Shown here piece by piece: positions 1 to 33,609 of a stretch of DNA of 33,662 nucleotides. The notes below the pieces were generated by a model that saw only the letters and a list, made by a program, of their open reading frames with translations, was not told the DNA's origin and ran no database searches. Source of the stretch: Clostridiales bacterium DTU070 (GTDB lineage: Bacteria; Bacillota; Clostridia; DSM-8532). Numbering within the stretch: position 1 is the first letter of the stretch; each line of letters opens with the position of its first letter. Both the position numbers and the translations under genes were made by a program. The stretch lies in contig LFSH01000075.1 in the NCBI GenBank assembly GCA_001513105.1, positions 1 through 33,662 on the forward strand, read 5' to 3'.

Positions 1-8
1 AAAACAAG

Positions 9-27
9 TTAACGGCCCTCTTTCGTT
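9..27 (+). repeat. 3' arm of a truncated third copy of the peptide-unit hairpin
   Basis: The sequence GTTAACGGCCCTCTTTCGTT at the window edge matches the loop and 3' arm of the hairpins that follow the two peptide genes (412-443 and 846-877). The downstream bases (an ACTGTAAA block at 47-54) also resemble those after the first hairpin. I infer that another peptide gene ends just before base 1 and that the array continues out of the window. Confidence 0.7.
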
Positions 28-109
28 ATAAACCATACAACAAAGACTGTAAAAAGAAATATCAAGAGATATTGCTAACAAAACAGGATAATTGAGATGA
101 GACCAGGAA

Positions 110-139
110 TTTAACGGATGTGAATTATAACGCTATATA
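110..139 (+). promoter_or_regulatory. candidate sigma-A promoter for peptide gene 1
   Basis: TTTAAC (110-115) and TATATA (134-139) are separated by 18 bases, about 75 bases upstream of the first peptide gene. The -35 element is weak, so this is tentative. Confidence 0.35.
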
Positions 140-146
140 AAGAAGC

Positions 147-185
147 AAAACCTGTTCTAAGAAATTAGCATAAACAGGTTGTTTT
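147..185 (+). promoter_or_regulatory. terminator-like hairpin in the leader of peptide gene 1
   Basis: AACCTGTT (149-156) pairs with AACAGGTT (173-180) and is followed by GTTTT, ending about 15 bases before the SD site of peptide 1. It lies between the candidate promoter and the gene. It could therefore be a leader attenuator, or the end of an upstream transcript. Confidence 0.45.
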
Positions 186-211
186 AAAAATACATATAAG
201 GAGATGAGAAT

Positions 212-385
212 ATGCAATATACATCACCGGCCATAAGCGCGCTCGGAACAGAAGGCCTGAGGCGGGATCAGGCAGAAATAGCGGGATTATGGGTTCTCAT
301 TGACACAGCGTTAGCAGTAATAGTTGCGGCAGCTGTTGCTTCAGTAGTGACCGTTATTGCATTTGCTATTGACATTACTCCGTAA
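212..385 (+). CDS. small peptide 1 of a tandem array, putative RiPP/bacteriocin-like precursor
   Basis: This 57-residue ORF has a good SD (AAGGAGATG) 7-10 bases before ATG. The protein starts MQYTSPAISALG, has a charged segment (residues 14-22), then a hydrophobic Val/Ala/Ile-rich stretch (about residues 24-50), and ends FAIDITP. It has no Cys. It aligns end to end with the peptide at 642-821: the first nine residues and last seven are identical while the middle differs. The spacing Y3, P6, I8, G12 matches the Y-x2-P-x-L-x3-G leader signature known from lasso-peptide precursors and bound by RRE domains. The hydrophobic remainder does not look like a lasso core. No modification enzyme is visible in the window. 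I infer a ribosomal secreted or modified peptide; the product class is unknown. Confidence 0.75.
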   Translation: MQYTSPAISALGTEGLRRDQAEIAGLWVLIDTALAVIVAAAVASVVTVIAFAIDITP

Positions 386-411
386 AATTTTCATATTGCA
401 TAAGTGATATG

Positions 412-443
412 ACGGAAGGGGCCCGTAAATGGCCTTCTTTCGT
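412..443 (+). repeat. conserved hairpin after peptide gene 1
   Basis: ACGGAAGGGGCC (412-423) pairs with GGCCTTCTTTCGT (431-443) around a 7-base loop, giving about 12 pairs with one bulged T. It lies 27 bases after the stop codon and is repeated after peptide 2 and at the window start. It resembles a terminator stem but lacks a clean T-run, so it may be a terminator or an mRNA 3'-end stabiliser. Confidence 0.7.
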
Positions 444-641
444 GTTTAGCCATAAAACTGTAAATGTTAAAAGGTAATATAGAACAAAGATTAAAGAATT
501 ATAAAAAGTTATGAAATCCGGAATTGTAAAAGATTTATATTATCACAGAAGAAATAGGAGAAGAATTCGAAAATATTTCTCTGTAATGAGAATTATTTAT
601 ATACAACCTGGTTCAGAAATACAGAGAAGGAGGTGAAGATA

Positions 642-821
642 ATGCAATATACATCACCGGCTATCAGCAAACTCGGGGCAGAAGGTTTTAGCCAGGATCA
701 TGCAGAGATTATGGGAGTATGGTTTCTTACCGAGACAGTAGTAGCAGCGATTGGAGTAGTTGCAGGAGTAGCTGCTGCAGTGACGATTTTTGTTCTCTTT
801 GCTATCGACATTACTCCGTAA
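642..821 (+). CDS. small peptide 2 of a tandem array, putative RiPP/bacteriocin-like precursor
   Basis: This is a 59-residue paralogue of the peptide at 212-385. I chose ATG 642 rather than GTG 633 because GAAGGAGGTG sits at 626-635 and ATG 642 gives the same MQYTSPAIS start as copy 1. Shared positions are MQYTSPAIS-x-LG-x-EG, D19, AEI, G25, W27 and the C-terminal FAIDITP. The hydrophobic segment (about residues 26-52) differs strongly and is two residues longer. The first 20 nucleotides are identical between copies and the 3' end is nearly so. Conserved ends around a diverged centre suggest that the ends are recognised by a shared export, processing or modification system. The actual product is not known. 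Confidence 0.75.
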   Translation: MQYTSPAISKLGAEGFSQDHAEIMGVWFLTETVVAAIGVVAGVAAAVTIFVLFAIDITP

Positions 822-845
822 ATTTCTTATTACATAAGTAATAAG

Positions 846-877
846 ACGGAAGGGGCCTGTTAACGGCCTTCTTTCGT
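846..877 (+). repeat. conserved hairpin after peptide gene 2
   Basis: ACGGAAGGGGCC (846-857) pairs with GGCCTTCTTTCGT (865-877) around TGTTAAC. It has the same stem as at 412-443 and lies 24 bases after the peptide 2 stop. A TTGACA/TATAAT promoter starts 13 bases further on, so the hairpin probably separates the peptide transcript from the transporter gene. Confidence 0.7.
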
Positions 878-889
878 TAATTGAGGTAA

Positions 890-916
890 TTGACAAAAAA
901 TGTAAAACCGTATAAT
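890..916 (+). promoter_or_regulatory. promoter for the ABC exporter gene
   Basis: Perfect TTGACA (890-895) and perfect TATAAT (911-916) are separated by 15 bases. The spacer is short; reading the -10 as TAATAT at 913 gives 17. It lies about 95 bases before the exporter start. Confidence 0.5.
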
Positions 917-1009
917 ATAAGATTAGAAGAATACTTTATGTTAATTTATATAAATTCAGGTATTATTATAAATATATTATACTATGAAGGAATAGGAGAT
1001 AAAATTGCT

Positions 1010-1297
1010 ATGAGTAAAGGAAAAACCATGAGAATGGGTATGAAAGCATTTTTTAAAATTGTATCTGAATTTATAACTGAAAATGAAGTTTCAATTATTA
1101 TTGGGTTTATTTTATCACTTTTGTTCTTTGTTTTTAACTCTGTATCTCCGTTTTTGACAAGATTTCTTATTGACAAGGTTTTTGCCGCCATGAGGGAAGA
1201 CCTTTTGATAGTTTTCCTGGTTTTGTCTGTTTCGGTACTGGTAATTGTTTCAGGAGCCGGACTTGGGTCTAACTTTATACTGGTAAGAGCATTTTAG
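1010..1297 (+). CDS. N-terminal fragment of an ABC exporter (TM1-TM2), ended by in-frame TAG
   Basis: The 95-residue product starts at ATG 1010, preceded by AGGAGAT (994-1000); the in-frame TTG at 890 lies inside the promoter and lacks an SD. It shows the first two helices of an ABC type-I exporter: one at about residues 28-52 ending in the typical PFLTRFLID elbow, and a second at about 66-90. It stops at TAG (1295-1297). The frame continues without shift (DIN then MKTKWALF) into the next ORF, whose sequence is the expected continuation of the same membrane domain. I infer one gene with a nonsense codon after TM2. It lies after the peptide array and would plausibly export those peptides if functional. 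Confidence 0.75.
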   Translation: MSKGKTMRMGMKAFFKIVSEFITENEVSIIIGFILSLLFFVFNSVSPFLTRFLIDKVFAAMREDLLIVFLVLSVSVLVIVSGAGLGSNFILVRAF

Positions 1298-1306
1298 GAT
1301 ATTAAT

Positions 1307-2671
1307 ATGAAAACAAAATGGGCACTGTTTAATAAAATCCGGAATGCGGGAATTGTCTTTTTCGGAGAGAACCGAAGCGGAGAAATTAATTACAGGCTGT
1401 TTAATGATACCGATACCCTGGACCGATTATATAATATTTTGTTCATAGGCCTTCCTTTGGATATAATCACAATACTGTTTTTGGGTATTACCATATTTAT
1501 ATGGAACTGGCAGCTGGCGATATTTATTTTTCTTGTCTTGATAGTGCAGGCGGTACTCATTGTGAAGCAAAGGAAAAAAATACTGGCGAATTACCAGGTT
1601 CAGAAAATGAAAACACAACACTTGTACGGTAATGTTGTGGAGTTCCTCAGGAATATCAACCTGATTAAAGGCATGGGAATGGAGGAGTTTTCAGGAAATA
1701 GCTTCCGGGAAGGCCTTAATGAGCTTAAAGAAGTAAATATAAAGACATTTATGGTAAATAACCTGACAAGTGTTTTGTCAAGTATGATAAATAATCTGTG
1801 GACATTCGGAATACTATGGTATGGAGGAAAACTTACTCTGCGGGGGGAAATAACTTTAGGTACGCTGATGGGATTACTGATTATTACAAATATGCTGTAT
1901 CCGCGGATTTCATCCATTACCGGAAGCATTTTGTCGTTCCAGGAAATCGGAGCCAGCATGATGCGGTTTCTTGAATACTATAATATCCCGCAGGCAGTGG
2001 CGGAGAGCAGGGAAGCGAAACCAGCCGCTGTACATAAGGGTGATATCAGGTTTGAGAATGTCAGTTTTGCCTATGACAGGGGGCCGAAAATACTGGATAA
2101 CGTGTCATTTTTAATCGAAGCCAAAAAAGCAACTGCCATTATCGGAAGCAACGGGGCAGGAAAAAGCACGATCTGCAAGCTGATTGCCAGGTTTTTTGAT
2201 CCTGTCGAGGGCAGAATAACAATAGACGGTGAAGATATAAAAGATTTTACCTTGGCTTCATTGAGATCTGTTATCAGATACCAGCCCCAGAACGAGTTCC
2301 TGCTGAGCGGTACCATACTTGAAAATATTACCTGCGGGGAGAAAGCGGCAAGTGAGGAAGAGGTGCTTGAGGCAGTCAGGAAAGCAAAAATAGCATCATT
2401 TATAGAGCAGCTTCCCGACGGACTTAATACCCGTATCGGGGAAGGCGGGCTGCAGCTTTCAGGAGGGCAGGCGCAAAGAATAGCATTGGCGAGAATTTAC
2501 TATCATAAACCGCCGATTGTTATTTTAGATGAGCCGACAGCATTTATAGATGCAGAAGGTGAGAGCCTGTTCAACGAAATAATCCGGGAACTGAAGGAGC
2601 AATGTACCGTTATAGTGGTTGCGCACAGGCAATCCACCATTAGCATGGCCGACAATAAAATACAATTATGA
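1307..2671 (+). CDS. ABC exporter, remaining membrane domain plus ATP-binding domain
   Basis: The 454-residue ORF is in the same frame as 1010-1297, separated only by TAG and three codons. AGGA overlapping the TAG could permit re-initiation at ATG 1307. Residues 1-220 carry the rest of an exporter membrane domain (the ENRSGEINYRLFNDTD coupling segment, then hydrophobic helices). The nucleotide-binding domain has Walker A GSNGAGKST, Q-loop QPQNEF, signature LSGGQAQR, Walker B VILDEPTAFID and switch histidine AHRQST. There is no C39 peptidase domain. The C-terminus stops at NKIQL, roughly 20-25 residues shorter than usual after the switch histidine. Family membership is certain; substrate (the nearby peptides) and activity of the split protein are inference. 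Confidence 0.8.
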   Translation: MKTKWALFNKIRNAGIVFFGENRSGEINYRLFNDTDTLDRLYNILFIGLPLDIITILFLGITIFIWNWQLAIFIFLVLIVQAVLIVKQRKKILANYQVQKMKTQHLYGNVVEFLRNINLIKGMGMEEFSGNSFREGLNELKEVNIKTFMVNNLTSVLSSMINNLWTFGILWYGGKLTLRGEITLGTLMGLLIITNMLYPRISSITGSILSFQEIGASMMRFLEYYNIPQAVAESREAKPAAVHKGDIRFENVSFAYDRGPKILDNVSFLIEAKKATAIIGSNGAGKSTICKLIARFFDPVEGRITIDGEDIKDFTLASLRSVIRYQPQNEFLLSGTILENITCGEKAASEEEVLEAVRKAKIASFIEQLPDGLNTRIGEGGLQLSGGQAQRIALARIYYHKPPIVILDEPTAFIDAEGESLFNEIIRELKEQCTVIVVAHRQSTISMADNKIQL

Positions 2672-2688
2672 TATGGGGGTATTCTGAA

Positions 2689-2994
2689 ATGGGAAATGAT
2701 AAAATCTTTTCGGTATTCAGGAAGTTTGGCTGGTTTTTGATTCCGCTTACGTTGGCAGCAAATTTTATTGCCTCCGGGCATATGAATGAGACCGTGGGAC
2801 TGCAAAAGGATATTATCAGCGGAACCACGCGCTATCATGTGCCTAAAAGCGTGTTTATTTTTTTAGTGCCCGCCATTCTCACCCTGTTATATGTTTATGT
2901 ATTAAACAGGAAGGAAAATGCTGCAAAGGGCATTATAATCAGTATTATTTTCTTTTTGGGAAACTTCTTTCTTATATTCGTTAATCTTAAATGA
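2689..2994 (+). CDS. small three-helix membrane protein, putative immunity/accessory protein
   Basis: The 101-residue protein starts at ATG 2689 with GGGGGT (2675-2680) nine bases upstream; the in-frame ATG 2668 overlaps the exporter end and has no SD. Hydrophobic segments lie near residues 12-27, 48-65 and 80-98, with a polar loop (about 28-45) between the first two. I do not recognise a family. Its position, immediately after the exporter and before an adaptor-ATPase-permease operon, is typical of immunity or accessory proteins in bacteriocin loci. That role is inference only. Confidence 0.65.
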   Translation: MGNDKIFSVFRKFGWFLIPLTLAANFIASGHMNETVGLQKDIISGTTRYHVPKSVFIFLVPAILTLLYVYVLNRKENAAKGIIISIIFFLGNFFLIFVNLK

Positions 2995-3009
2995 CATTTC
3001 TGATGCGGC

Positions 3010-3163: not shown

Positions 3164-4048
3164 ATGGATAAAAAAAGAAAGAAAAACAAAAGAGCATGGA
3201 TTATAACCGGAACATTAGCTGTTTTAATATCGATAATGGTATCTTACTATTTTCTTCGCCCGGCAAACTTATCCTACAGGAAGGTAAAAGCCCGGACAGG
3301 CAGTATTGCAGCCTATTACTCGTTCTCCGGCAATGTTGCATCAAAGAAGCGGCAGTCTGTATTTTCCGAAAAAGCAATACAGATATCCAGGATAAACACG
3401 GAGAGAGGGCAGGAGGTAAAAGCAGGCGATGTTCTGCTTGTTACCGCTGACGGCGATGAACTGATAGCTGAAATCGACGGTGAAGTGGCACTTATCAATG
3501 TTCAGGAGAACAAGCAGGTAATGCCGGGAACGCTTCTGATTGAAATAGTTGATTATAATGAGCTTAAAGTGGTGTTTAAAGTTGATGAGTATGATGTCAA
3601 TGCGTTAAGTACCGGTAAAGAGGCAATTATCCATATACCGGCGGTTAAAAAGGAGCTTAAAGGGAATATCAGGGAAATATCAAAAGAAGGCCGGATAGAA
3701 AACGGTGTTACGTTCTATACCGCCTCAATCGACATAAAGCAGGACGAAAGCATTCGTACGGGCATGTCAGCCGAAATCAGGCTTTTGAGTGAAAAAGCTG
3801 AAAATATTGTAGTTCTCCCGATGGACGTGATCCGGTTTGATGATCAAAATCAGCCCTATGTACTTAAAGCCGGCGAAAAAAACAAGGTTATAAAACAAAG
3901 CATTGTAACGGGAATTAATGATGGTATTTATGTTGAAATAAGAAGCGGGGTTACAGACGGAGAAGAGGTGTTTTACGAAAATGATTTGAAACCGGAGGCA
4001 TTATTGTTTCCTGAAGGAGGGAAAAACATAAGGTTAAATCCCAGGTGA
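3164..4048 (+). CDS. MacA/HlyD-like membrane-fusion (adaptor) subunit of an ABC efflux system
   Basis: The 294-residue protein starts at ATG 3164 with GGAGG (3151-3155). Residues 1-12 are very basic, followed by one membrane anchor (about 13-31). An extracellular region with the biotinyl-lipoyl-like fold follows (segments QISRINTERGQEVKAGDVLL and ALINVQENKQVMPGTLLIEI), then beta-barrel and membrane-proximal domains ending in RSGVTDGEEVFYEN. The usual coiled-coil hairpin is nearly absent, as is common in Gram-positive homologues without an outer membrane. It is followed after 8 bases by an ATPase gene and then a permease gene. Together they form a MacAB-type tripartite set. In some bacteriocin loci (for example AS-48 EFGH) such sets give immunity or aid export; that role here is inferred from context. 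Confidence 0.85.
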   Translation: MDKKRKKNKRAWIITGTLAVLISIMVSYYFLRPANLSYRKVKARTGSIAAYYSFSGNVASKKRQSVFSEKAIQISRINTERGQEVKAGDVLLVTADGDELIAEIDGEVALINVQENKQVMPGTLLIEIVDYNELKVVFKVDEYDVNALSTGKEAIIHIPAVKKELKGNIREISKEGRIENGVTFYTASIDIKQDESIRTGMSAEIRLLSEKAENIVVLPMDVIRFDDQNQPYVLKAGEKNKVIKQSIVTGINDGIYVEIRSGVTDGEEVFYENDLKPEALLFPEGGKNIRLNPR

Positions 4049-4056
4049 GGCAGAAG

Positions 4057-4737
4057 ATGAGTGAAATTGTCAGCATGAAAAACATATGCAAAAGTTATTA
4101 TCTGTGTGATGAAGAGATTAAGGTTCTGAAACATATAAACCTTAAGGTGTATAAGGGAGAATTCATATCGGTCCTGGGTCCTTCGGGTTCCGGAAAAACC
4201 ACGCTGATGAATATTATCGGATGCCTTGACGTGCCTACTTCGGGAAAATATATATTGTGCGGAAACGACATATCCGAAATGAACGAAACAGAGCTTGCAG
4301 TAATACGGAACAAGGAAATAGGCTTTGTTTTTCAAAGTTTTTTCCTTCTTCCAAGGCTGACGGCACTGCAGAATGTAGAACTTCCCCTTGTTTATTCCGG
4401 CTTGCCGCAGAAAGAACGCAGAGGCAGGGCGAAGGAAATGCTTTGCAGGGTTGGCCTTGCTGATAAAATGAATAACCTGCCGAGCCAGCTTTCAGGAGGC
4501 CAGCAGCAACGTGTGGCGATCGCCAGGGCTCTTGTAACTGAACCGTCAATTATTCTTGCAGACGAACCAACAGGCGCCCTGGACCAAAAAACCGGCGCAG
4601 ACATTATTGGATATTTTGAAAGGCTGAATGCCGAGGGCAGGACAATAATAATGATCACTCATGACATTAATGTTGCACGCCATGCGCACAGAACTGTAAA
4701 CATACTTGACGGACAGTTGACGGAGGCACGGGCTTAA
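4057..4737 (+). CDS. MacB/LolD-type ABC transporter ATP-binding protein
   Basis: The 226-residue ATPase starts at ATG 4057, with AGGTGAG (4043-4049) overlapping the adaptor stop codon; GTG 4045 is the in-frame alternative. It has Walker [11 protein letters not shown]-loop [11 protein letters not shown], signature [15 protein letters not shown], Walker [12 protein letters not shown] and switch histidine ITHD. The size and the [11 protein letters not shown] signature are typical of the MacB/LolD/SalX family, which drives mechanotransmission permeases rather than classical substrate translocation. Its stop overlaps the next start as TAATG, indicating translational coupling to the permease. Confidence 0.92.
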
Positions 4738-5909
4738 TGCTTTTTGAAAGCATCAGGATGTCTTTTGTGAATATAAGGAAAAACAAGCTAAGGTCACTGC
4801 TGACAATGCTGGGCATTGTTATCGGTGTGGCTTCAGTTATAGCTTTGATTACAATTGTCCGGGGAGCGGCAGATGATATAGGAAACAGGGTTATAAGTCT
4901 CGGCGGCAAAAAAATATATATCAATGTGATTGGAACTCCGCTGAAGCAGGGACTAACACATAATGATGCGGAAGAAATTCTGTCCGTTGGCAATATAACC
5001 GGTATCTCCCCGACGGTATCGGGTATGGCTTCGGTGGTTTACCAGGGCAAAGTGCTGGAAAATGTTGTTGTAGAAGGCAAGAACGAAGTGTATTTCAAGG
5101 CCGATCCCGATTTGCTGGCTTCGGGAAGGGCTGTTAACATTCTTGACCTAAAAAGCAGGAACCAGGTTGCGGTAATCGGGTTCAACATTGCAAGGGAGCT
5201 GTTTTTCGGAAGAAACCCCATAGGAGAGGAAATCATTATAAACGGAATGACCTACACGGTTATCGGCACCCTTAAGGAAACCACAGGCTTCAGGCCGGAT
5301 TCAACCAACGATGCCGTAATAATACCATATACAACGGCTTTGCGTGTTCTCGGCGTAAAATACATAAAGACCCTTGATGCCTATCTTGAGGATACAAGCC
5401 TTGCGGATCAGACAATAATGGAAATAAAGGGAATTTTAAACCGGGCCTTCAACTATAACGAAGATGCTTATAATGTTTATAACATGGGTGATATAATAGA
5501 TTCCTTCCAGTCGATAATGTCAATGATGTCTATGCTTCTTGCCGGAATTGCCGCAATATCCCTCGTCGTCGGCGGAATTGGAATCATGAATATGATGCTG
5601 GTATCAGTATCCGAGCGCACAACGGAAATAGGGCTGCGTAAAGCCTTAGGTGCAACACCGTTTGCAATAAGGCTACAGTTCATAACAGAATCCATATTTC
5701 TGTCGGTTACGGGAGGGATTATAGGATTAATAATGGGGGTGCTGCTGGCATATATACTTGCAGCGGTTATAGGCATAAGCGTGTCGGTTTCCCTGTCAAC
5801 AAACCTGCTTGCAGTTGGTTTCTCGGCGGCCGTCGGCATTGTATTCGGATATATGCCTGCAGGGAAAGCAAGCCGGCTTAACCCGATAGATGCCTTAAAA
5901 AGTCTTTAG
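4737..5909 (+). CDS. MacB-like FtsX-family ABC permease
   Basis: The 390-residue permease overlaps the ATPase stop by one base (TAATG). Topology is that of a MacB-type permease: TM1 (about residues 18-41), a large extracellular MacB_PCD-like domain (about 45-240), then three C-terminal helices (about 262-290, 315-345, 352-375). The cytoplasmic motif ERTTEIGLRKALGAT, which contacts the ATPase, is well conserved. With the adaptor and ATPase it forms a complete efflux or defence complex. It ends at base 5909, directly against the convergent minus-strand gene, with no room for a terminator. Confidence 0.9.
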   Translation: MLFESIRMSFVNIRKNKLRSLLTMLGIVIGVASVIALITIVRGAADDIGNRVISLGGKKIYINVIGTPLKQGLTHNDAEEILSVGNITGISPTVSGMASVVYQGKVLENVVVEGKNEVYFKADPDLLASGRAVNILDLKSRNQVAVIGFNIARELFFGRNPIGEEIIINGMTYTVIGTLKETTGFRPDSTNDAVIIPYTTALRVLGVKYIKTLDAYLEDTSLADQTIMEIKGILNRAFNYNEDAYNVYNMGDIIDSFQSIMSMMSMLLAGIAAISLVVGGIGIMNMMLVSVSERTTEIGLRKALGATPFAIRLQFITESIFLSVTGGIIGLIMGVLLAYILAAVIGISVSVSLSTNLLAVGFSAAVGIVFGYMPAGKASRLNPIDALKSL

Positions 5910-6212
5910 CTACCTGGCTTTGGGCGGAGGAACGGCAATTCCCGGATCAATATCAGGTCCCTGGAGAACTATTTTACGGTCAATGTCCGGTCCCTCAATC
6001 AGCATTCCGGGATCGCACAGGTATTCATTCATGGCCTGGGCGTTTCTGTACTCAGCTTTAAATACCAATAGATTTATATCATCCGTTTCTTCATGCTTTT
6101 CATACTTTTCATACTTATGGCATGCATTATTATCAATGCTGCTCAGAAAAAGAGCGGCAACCAAAAGCATAAATATCAGAGAGATACCAATCAGCTGTTT
6201 AATTCCTGTCAT
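5910..6212 (-). CDS. small secreted or membrane-anchored protein with a C-terminal GPDID repeat
   Basis: The 100-residue protein has an SD (GGAGTG at 6219-6224, minus strand) six bases before ATG 6212; a GTG nine bases upstream is less likely. Residues 1-27 form a signal peptide or membrane anchor. A Lys/Glu/Tyr-rich segment follows, then an Asp/Pro-rich tail with two copies of GPDID (EGPDID and QGPDID) ending in a proline run and a basic end. I do not recognise a family. It is convergent with the permease gene and their stop codons abut. Reading-frame quality, the SD and a TATAAT element upstream support a real gene. Confidence 0.6.
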   Translation of the reverse strand: MTGIKQLIGISLIFMLLVAALFLSSIDNNACHKYEKYEKHEETDDINLLVFKAEYRNAQAMNEYLCDPGMLIEGPDIDRKIVLQGPDIDPGIAVPPPKAR

Positions 6213-6241
6213 GGCAGTCACTCCGTTATTTTTTCGGATAT

Positions 6242-33400: not shown

Positions 33401-33491
33401 GGAGAGATGGTCGAGCTGGTTTAAGGCACCGGTCTTGAAAACCGGCGTGGGTTTACGCCCACCCTGGGTTCGAATCCCAGTCTCTCCGCCA
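33401..33491 (+). tRNA. tRNA-Ser (anticodon UGA)
   Basis: The acceptor stem GGAGAGA (33401-33407) pairs with TCTCTCC (33481-33487), with discriminator G and encoded CCA (33489-33491). The anticodon arm CCGGT-CTTGAAA-ACCGG gives TGA at 33436-33438. A long variable arm (GTGGGTTTACGCCCAC) and GGTTCGAATCC T-arm confirm a class II serine tRNA. Confidence 0.97.
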
Positions 33492-33515
33492 GTTTAATAT
33501 TATAATGTTTATTCT

Positions 33516-33609
33516 GGAGAAGTACTCAAGTTGGCCGAAGAGGCGCCCCTGCTAAGGGTGTAGGTCGTTTAAAGACGGCGCGAGGGTTCGAATCCCTCCT
33601 TCTCCGCCA
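33516..33609 (+). tRNA. tRNA-Ser (anticodon GCU)
   Basis: The acceptor stem GGAGAAG (33516-33522) pairs with CTTCTCC (33599-33605), with discriminator G and encoded CCA (33607-33609). The loop CTGCTAA gives anticodon GCT at 33551-33553. A long variable arm (GTCGTTTAAAGACGGC) and GGTTCGAATCC T-arm are present. It is 24 bases after the first serine tRNA and probably co-transcribed. Confidence 0.97.

What the first reader, a model, noticed from the sequence alone, without database searches (positions are those of the whole stretch)
1..885. Tandem array of small peptides with fixed ends and diverged hydrophobic centres
Two adjacent genes (212-385, 642-821), spaced 430 bases start to start, encode peptides sharing MQYTSPAIS and FAIDITP exactly, with near-identical DNA at both ends but a diverged hydrophobic middle. 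A third unit is implied at the window edge. Fixed ends with a variable centre suggest shared recognition by an export or modification system, with diversification of the active segment. Neither the sequence nor the layout matches a bacteriocin class that I can name.
Basis: partly seen in the sequence, partly recalled or inferred. Interest (0 to 1): 0.85.

Follow-up and report, generated by a model that had tools for sequence, protein, structure and literature searches.

The report
Orphan tandem hydrophobic peptide genes
A clostridial-type bacterium carries at least two, probably three or more, tandem genes for an undescribed family of small, greasy, helix-forming peptides beside an exporter gene; they look like exported antimicrobial-peptide precursors, but the enzymes or partners that would prove it are not on this piece of sequence.

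Summary
Two RBS-preceded ORFs (212-385, 57 aa; 642-821, 59 aa) are 63% identical paralogues (E=4e-15) with invariant MQYTSPAIS and FAIDITP ends. Each is followed by the same pair of RNA hairpins. The 3' half of the second hairpin recurs at 8-28 and nowhere else in the ~2 Mb of this genome that I read, so a third unit ended about 30 bp before the contig edge. The window is the whole contig. No other copy was found in the searchable assembly, nor in 390 other genomes of the class, the species-level genome collection, viral contigs, phages or plasmids. Pfam and NCBIfam are silent. Best reading (0.5): precursors of an exported hydrophobic helical peptide (RiPP/bacteriocin-like). The N-terminus carries the lasso-type RRE recognition motif YxxPxI, and a peptidase-less BmrA-like ABC exporter follows, though an in-frame TAG interrupts it. 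No modifying enzyme was found, and lasso, daptide and class IIb tests each fail on defining features. The substitutions do not indicate diversifying selection (dN/dS about 0.36 in the middle). MacAB downstream is ancestral in congeners and probably not part of the system. New orphan peptide family; mechanism unproven.

The parts
8..28 (+). 3' half of the downstream hairpin of a third, upstream unit (unit 0) whose coding part is off the contig
   Evidence: GTTAACGGCCCTCTTTCGTTA, matching 859-879; the motif is found only in this array
148..185 (+). 5' hairpin with U tail (AAAACCUGUU...AACAGGUUGUUUU) ahead of unit 1; terminator-like for unit 0 or a leader structure
   Evidence: RNA fold of 130-185: -12 kcal/mol, z -2.84
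212..385 (+). peptide gene 1, 57 aa, MQYTSPAISALGTEGLRRDQAEIAGLWVLIDTALAVIVAAAVASVVTVIAFAIDITP
   Evidence: ORF with RBS AAGGAG; paralogue of gene 2
392..443 (+). twin hairpin after gene 1
   Evidence: fold -22.2 kcal/mol, z -3.53; 100% of pairs kept in both copies, one compensatory
642..821 (+). peptide gene 2, 59 aa, MQYTSPAISKLGAEGFSQDHAEIMGVWFLTETVVAAIGVVAGVAAAVTIFVLFAIDITP
   Evidence: ORF with RBS GAAGGAGG; AlphaFold: one helix 6-57, mean pLDDT 84
826..877 (+). twin hairpin after gene 2
   Evidence: fold -23 kcal/mol, z -4.09
1010..2671 (+). peptidase-less type IV (BmrA/Sav1866-like) ABC exporter gene, interrupted by an in-frame TAG at 1295-1297; an ATG at 1307 in the same frame could restart a 454-aa product
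   Evidence: residues 8-549 of the read-through align to BmrA 9-545; gap-free alignment across the TAG
2689..2994 (+). 101-aa hydrophobic, probably three-helix membrane protein; candidate immunity or accessory protein; no clear homologue
   Evidence: no Pfam hit, NCBIfam only a spurious E=0.07; absent from congeners, only weak hits in 390 other class genomes
3164..5909 (+). MacA-like adaptor, MacB-like ATPase and FtsX-type permease; probably NOT part of the peptide system (ancestral neighbours)
   Evidence: families; permease next to hflX in three congeners and MacA orthologue upstream in two of them, all without the peptides

Best explanation
The two (probably three or more) genes encode precursors of secreted hydrophobic peptides (RiPP/bacteriocin-like). 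Residues 1 to ~24 act as a leader whose YxxPxIxxLG motif is read by a processing or modification protein. Residues ~25 to 59 form the product, a membrane-inserting helix with a fixed FAIDITP end. The adjacent peptidase-less ABC exporter carries the processed peptide out, and the 101-aa membrane protein may give immunity. Each unit has its own RBS and conserved 3' hairpins that would stabilise or terminate abundant short messages. Shown: the paralogous genes, RBSs, hairpins, predicted helix, adjacent exporter gene and absence from congeners. Inferred: leader function, processing, export, membrane activity and immunity. The exporter's in-frame TAG means the pathway may be broken or decaying in this strain.
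For: Paralogous coding genes with synonymous excess: pS 0.48 against pN 0.19, and no amino-acid change at residues 1-9 and 53-59 despite synonymous changes there. Fixed polar N-terminus (Y3, P6, I8, G12) matching YxxPx[L/I]; the form YxxPx[IL]xxxG occurs in 6 of 15,085 other short ORFs of this genome, and YxxP(xL) is the described RRE recognition sequence of lasso leaders (PMC6784204; PMC12710340). Hydrophobic C-terminal half (KD about 2.0-2.7) predicted as one helix. Directly followed by an ABC exporter and a small membrane protein on the same strand, neither with an orthologue in congeners. Multi-copy similar short ORFs near transporters raised confidence in precursor calls in the daptide work (PMC10036551). 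The genome holds other radical-SAM peptide clusters, so the organism is likely to make such products.
Against: No modification enzyme or leader peptidase next to the peptides or identified in the searchable genome. No homologue anywhere, so conservation cannot be tested beyond two copies. The YxxP match was noticed after the fact. The exporter has a premature stop. No direct evidence of expression, processing or activity.
Confidence: 0.5

Rival explanations
1. Unmodified small single-span membrane proteins that stay in the cell, for example regulatory partners of the exporter or type-I-toxin-like membrane peptides kept in tandem. The polar N-terminus stays inside and the DITP end outside.
For: One long predicted helix; no processing enzymes found; strong 3' hairpins; no diversifying selection.
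Against: A ~24-residue polar N-terminus with invariant residues is long for a membrane toxin; no Rfam match in the region; position directly before an exporter fits a secreted substrate better.
Confidence: 0.25
2. Lasso-peptide precursors: leader ends before G25, and the ring forms between G25 and the acid at position 31 (E in peptide 2, D in peptide 1), leaving a very long hydrophobic tail.
For: YxxPxI leader motif; a conserved Gly followed six residues later by an interchangeable D/E, a 7-residue ring; peptidase-less ABC exporter alongside.
Against: The Thr described at -2 in all lasso leaders (PMC6784204) is absent (I23). No lasso B2 match over cut-off (PF13471, best 17.7 bits in a 278-aa ORF). 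The only PqqD/RRE match lies in a 452-aa ORF with a radical-SAM Cx3Cx2C motif. A 33-35-residue core is unusually long.
Confidence: 0.08
3. Two-peptide (class IIb) bacteriocin: the two peptides act together as a GxxxG-type transmembrane pair.
For: Two adjacent hydrophobic peptides; GVVAG in peptide 2.
Against: No double-glycine leader and no C39 peptidase on the exporter. The peptides are 63% identical duplicates of each other with a third unit, unlike the dissimilar partners of class IIb.
Confidence: 0.05
4. A decaying remnant: a once-functional peptide cluster acquired by this lineage and now losing function, as shown by the nonsense codon in the exporter.
For: In-frame TAG in an otherwise intact 553-codon exporter frame; absent from congeners; no enzymes found.
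Against: Both peptide genes are intact with purifying-type substitution patterns. A restart ATG with an upstream AGGA lies 9 bases after the TAG. The TAG may be an assembly error.
Confidence: 0.12

Closest known systems
Lasso peptides (YxxP-leader type with separate RRE, Actinobacteria/Firmicutes)
   Same: Leader motif YxxPx[L/I]; short precursors beside a peptidase-less ABC exporter
   Different: No Thr at -2, no B2 peptidase or stand-alone RRE found, very long hydrophobic core, fixed C-terminal DITP
Daptides
   Same: Several similar short precursors per locus, hydrophobic helical core, ABC transport
   Different: C-terminal residue is Pro, not the invariant Thr; no daptide model match; no oxidoreductase/aminotransferase/methyltransferase seen next to the genes
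Class IIb two-peptide bacteriocins
   Same: Adjacent small hydrophobic peptides plus an ABC exporter
   Different: No double-glycine leader, no C39 peptidase, peptides are near-duplicates
Circular bacteriocins
   Same: Hydrophobic helical peptides
   Different: Single hydrophobic stretch of ~30 residues, no family-model match; the MacAB-like transporter here is an ancestral neighbour
BmrA/Sav1866-type ABC exporters
   Same: Full-length alignment of the adjacent exporter
   Different: This copy carries an in-frame TAG and is only ~22-28% identical to the relatives tested in the same family of organisms

Membership tests
Lasso peptides | YxxPx[L/I] RRE-recognition motif in the leader | tested here: met
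   Y3-T-S-P6-A-I8 in both peptides; motif from PMC6784204
Lasso peptides | Thr at -2 of the cleavage site | tested here: not met
   I23 precedes M/A24-G25 in both; depends on the assumed cleavage site
Lasso peptides | Gly at core position 1 and Asp/Glu at 7-9 | tested here: inconclusive
   G25 and E31/D31 fit a 7-residue ring, but the cleavage site is not known
Lasso peptides | B2 transglutaminase-like peptidase and RRE in the genome | tested here: not met
Lasso peptides | Asn-synthetase-like cyclase (C) | tested here: inconclusive
   SGG[LVIM]DS motif scan of ~2 Mb found three proteins, none judged a lasso cyclase by eye; a motif scan only
[quoted passage not shown]
   Both end in ...DITP; criterion from PMC10036551
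Daptides | DapBCDM enzymes in the cluster | not testable with these tools
   None downstream; upstream is off the contig and was not searched for by family
Class IIb two-peptide bacteriocins | Double-glycine leader | tested here: not met
   No GG site before the hydrophobic part in either peptide
Class IIb two-peptide bacteriocins | C39 peptidase-containing ABC exporter | tested here: not met
   Exporter aligns from residue 8 with BmrA residue 9; no C39 domain hit
Any Pfam/NCBIfam family | Model match | tested here: not met
   0 NCBIfam hits at E<=1; only a spurious Pfam hit, E=0.05 and below cut-off

The most novel reading that the evidence does not exclude
A new RiPP class in which a lasso-type YxxP leader directs processing of an otherwise lasso-unlike precursor into a ~33-residue transmembrane helical peptide whose invariant C-terminal DITP is a second recognition or modification site, produced from a multi-copy array.
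Probability: 0.2. Interest if true: 0.65.

Novelty: new variant of a known kind. Interest (0 to 1): 0.4.

Why it matters
If it is an exported peptide system, it adds an orphan precursor family that current family models miss, with a leader logic seen in lasso pathways attached to a hydrophobic helix not seen there. That would give a concrete test of how far RRE recognition motifs can be used to find new peptide classes.

Tried and rejected
1) Further copies: protein, profile and DNA searches of the own genome found only the two. 2) Relatives: none convincing in 98 relatives and 390 class genomes (best non-self profile hit E=0.024, a 28-aa frame), plasmids, phages, the species genome collection or viral contigs. 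3) Upstream contig: I fetched both ends of every other contig and looked for sequence overlap, motif peptides and RiPP enzymes. No overlap and no further copy. A broken CapK-like gene at the end of C93 was examined and dropped: its contig ends after a tRNA-like stretch with no link to the array. 5) MacAB as part of the cluster: rejected, because it is conserved next to hflX in congeners lacking the peptides. 6) A scan with MacA for related clusters returned one distant Flavobacterium protein. 7) Fold search of the single helix is uninformative. 8) Diversifying selection: not supported. 9) Hairpin covariation: every pair is kept but only one is compensatory between two sequences, so it is suggestive only.

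Full report
Observation. The peptides are 63% identical, pairwise E-value 4e-15. Residues 1-9 and 53-59 are identical. The DNA similarity runs on into the RBS region and, strikingly, into the 3' UTR, where each copy is followed by the same two stem-loops. The coding pattern is that of real genes: 21 synonymous against 24 nonsynonymous differences over 44 and 127 sites, pS 0.48 against pN 0.19.

Third unit. The 3' half of the second stem-loop is found at 8-28, at ~428 and at 859-879. It is found nowhere else in the window or in ~2.0 Mb of the same genome that I read. In units 1 and 2 this element begins 41-43 bases after the stop codon, so a unit 0 stop codon would lie about 30 bases left of the window. 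The window is the full contig C33 of 33,662 bases.

Divergence. Residues 1-9 and 53-59 have no nonsynonymous changes. The middle (26-52) has dN 0.35 and dS 0.99, a ratio of about 0.36. Replacements there are nearly all between hydrophobic or small residues, apart from T/I30 and E/D31. This is weaker constraint on a hydrophobic segment, not evidence of diversification for its own sake. With two sequences of under 60 codons the estimate is rough.

Distribution. Neither peptide matches Pfam or NCBIfam, solved structures, plasmids or phages, species-level genomes, viral contigs, 98 relatives or 390 other genomes of the class. The two collection scans rely on exact short peptide patterns, so diverged relatives could be missed. 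The adjacent exporter's best matches in the organism's own family are only about 26% identical. The 101-aa membrane protein has no hit in congeners and only weak, mostly stop-interrupted hits elsewhere in the class. By contrast MacA/MacB and hflX are the same neighbours in congeners without the peptides: the permease directly before hflX in three, the MacA orthologue upstream in two. So the lineage-specific part is about 1-3000, and MacAB is probably not part of it.

Anatomy. The N-terminal ~24 residues are polar and include Y3-x-x-P6-x-I8-x-x-x-G12. Among 15,085 other short ORFs in the same genome this motif occurs in 6. YxxP(xL) is the recognition sequence described for RRE domains of lasso-peptide pathways (PMC6784204; PMC12710340). 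The rest is a hydrophobic helix ending in FAIDITP. The exporter is a peptidase-less type IV ABC protein alignable end to end with BmrA, but codon 96 is TAG in a position where relatives align without a gap. An ATG nine bases after the TAG, behind AGGA, could restart translation. Whether the TAG is real, tolerated or inactivating is open.

Mechanism. I favour exported peptide precursors (0.5): a leader for recognition, a hydrophobic helical product, and ABC export. The gene anatomy is shown; processing, export and activity are inferred. The main rival is that the peptides stay as small membrane proteins (0.25). Lasso, daptide and class IIb memberships were tested and each fails at least one defining feature. 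The lasso case keeps some life because of a conserved Gly25 and an interchangeable acid at 31, but no lasso peptidase or free-standing RRE was found in the searchable genome.

Limits. The organism was not identified. That the organism is clostridial-type is my inference from the gene content (a SCIFF-type radical SAM maturase, several radical-SAM peptide clusters), not a database assignment.

Noticed in passing
window 1295-1297: In-frame TAG in the ABC exporter gene; relatives align across it without a gap, and an ATG with AGGA upstream follows nine bases later.
   Followed up: partly
L097:7824-17320 (contig C38 of the same genome, minus strand): Unusual putative peptide-modification cluster: 36-aa peptide ending in CCISSC, B12-binding radical SAM, a second radical SAM protein, acyl-carrier-like protein, a TldD/PmbA-like metalloprotease pair, a PapB/SCIFF-like radical SAM/SPASM protein and an ABC exporter.
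   Followed up: partly
L090:11748-15364 (contig C30 of the same genome): Cys-rich repeat peptide of 122 aa next to a CefB-like radical SAM/SPASM maturase (574 bits against a cut-off of 600) and an ABC exporter.
   Followed up: partly
L201:17753-19108 (contig C93): CapK/PaaK-like adenylate-forming gene broken by frameshifts near the contig end.
   Followed up: partly
window 33401-33606: Two tRNA genes at the right end of the contig.
   Followed up: no
window 5910-6221, minus strand: 103-aa ORF between the permease gene and hflX with repeated GPDIDxxI segments; a similar short ORF (GPDIDPKIAVEGPDIDRGI) sits at the same place in congener locus L213.
   Followed up: no
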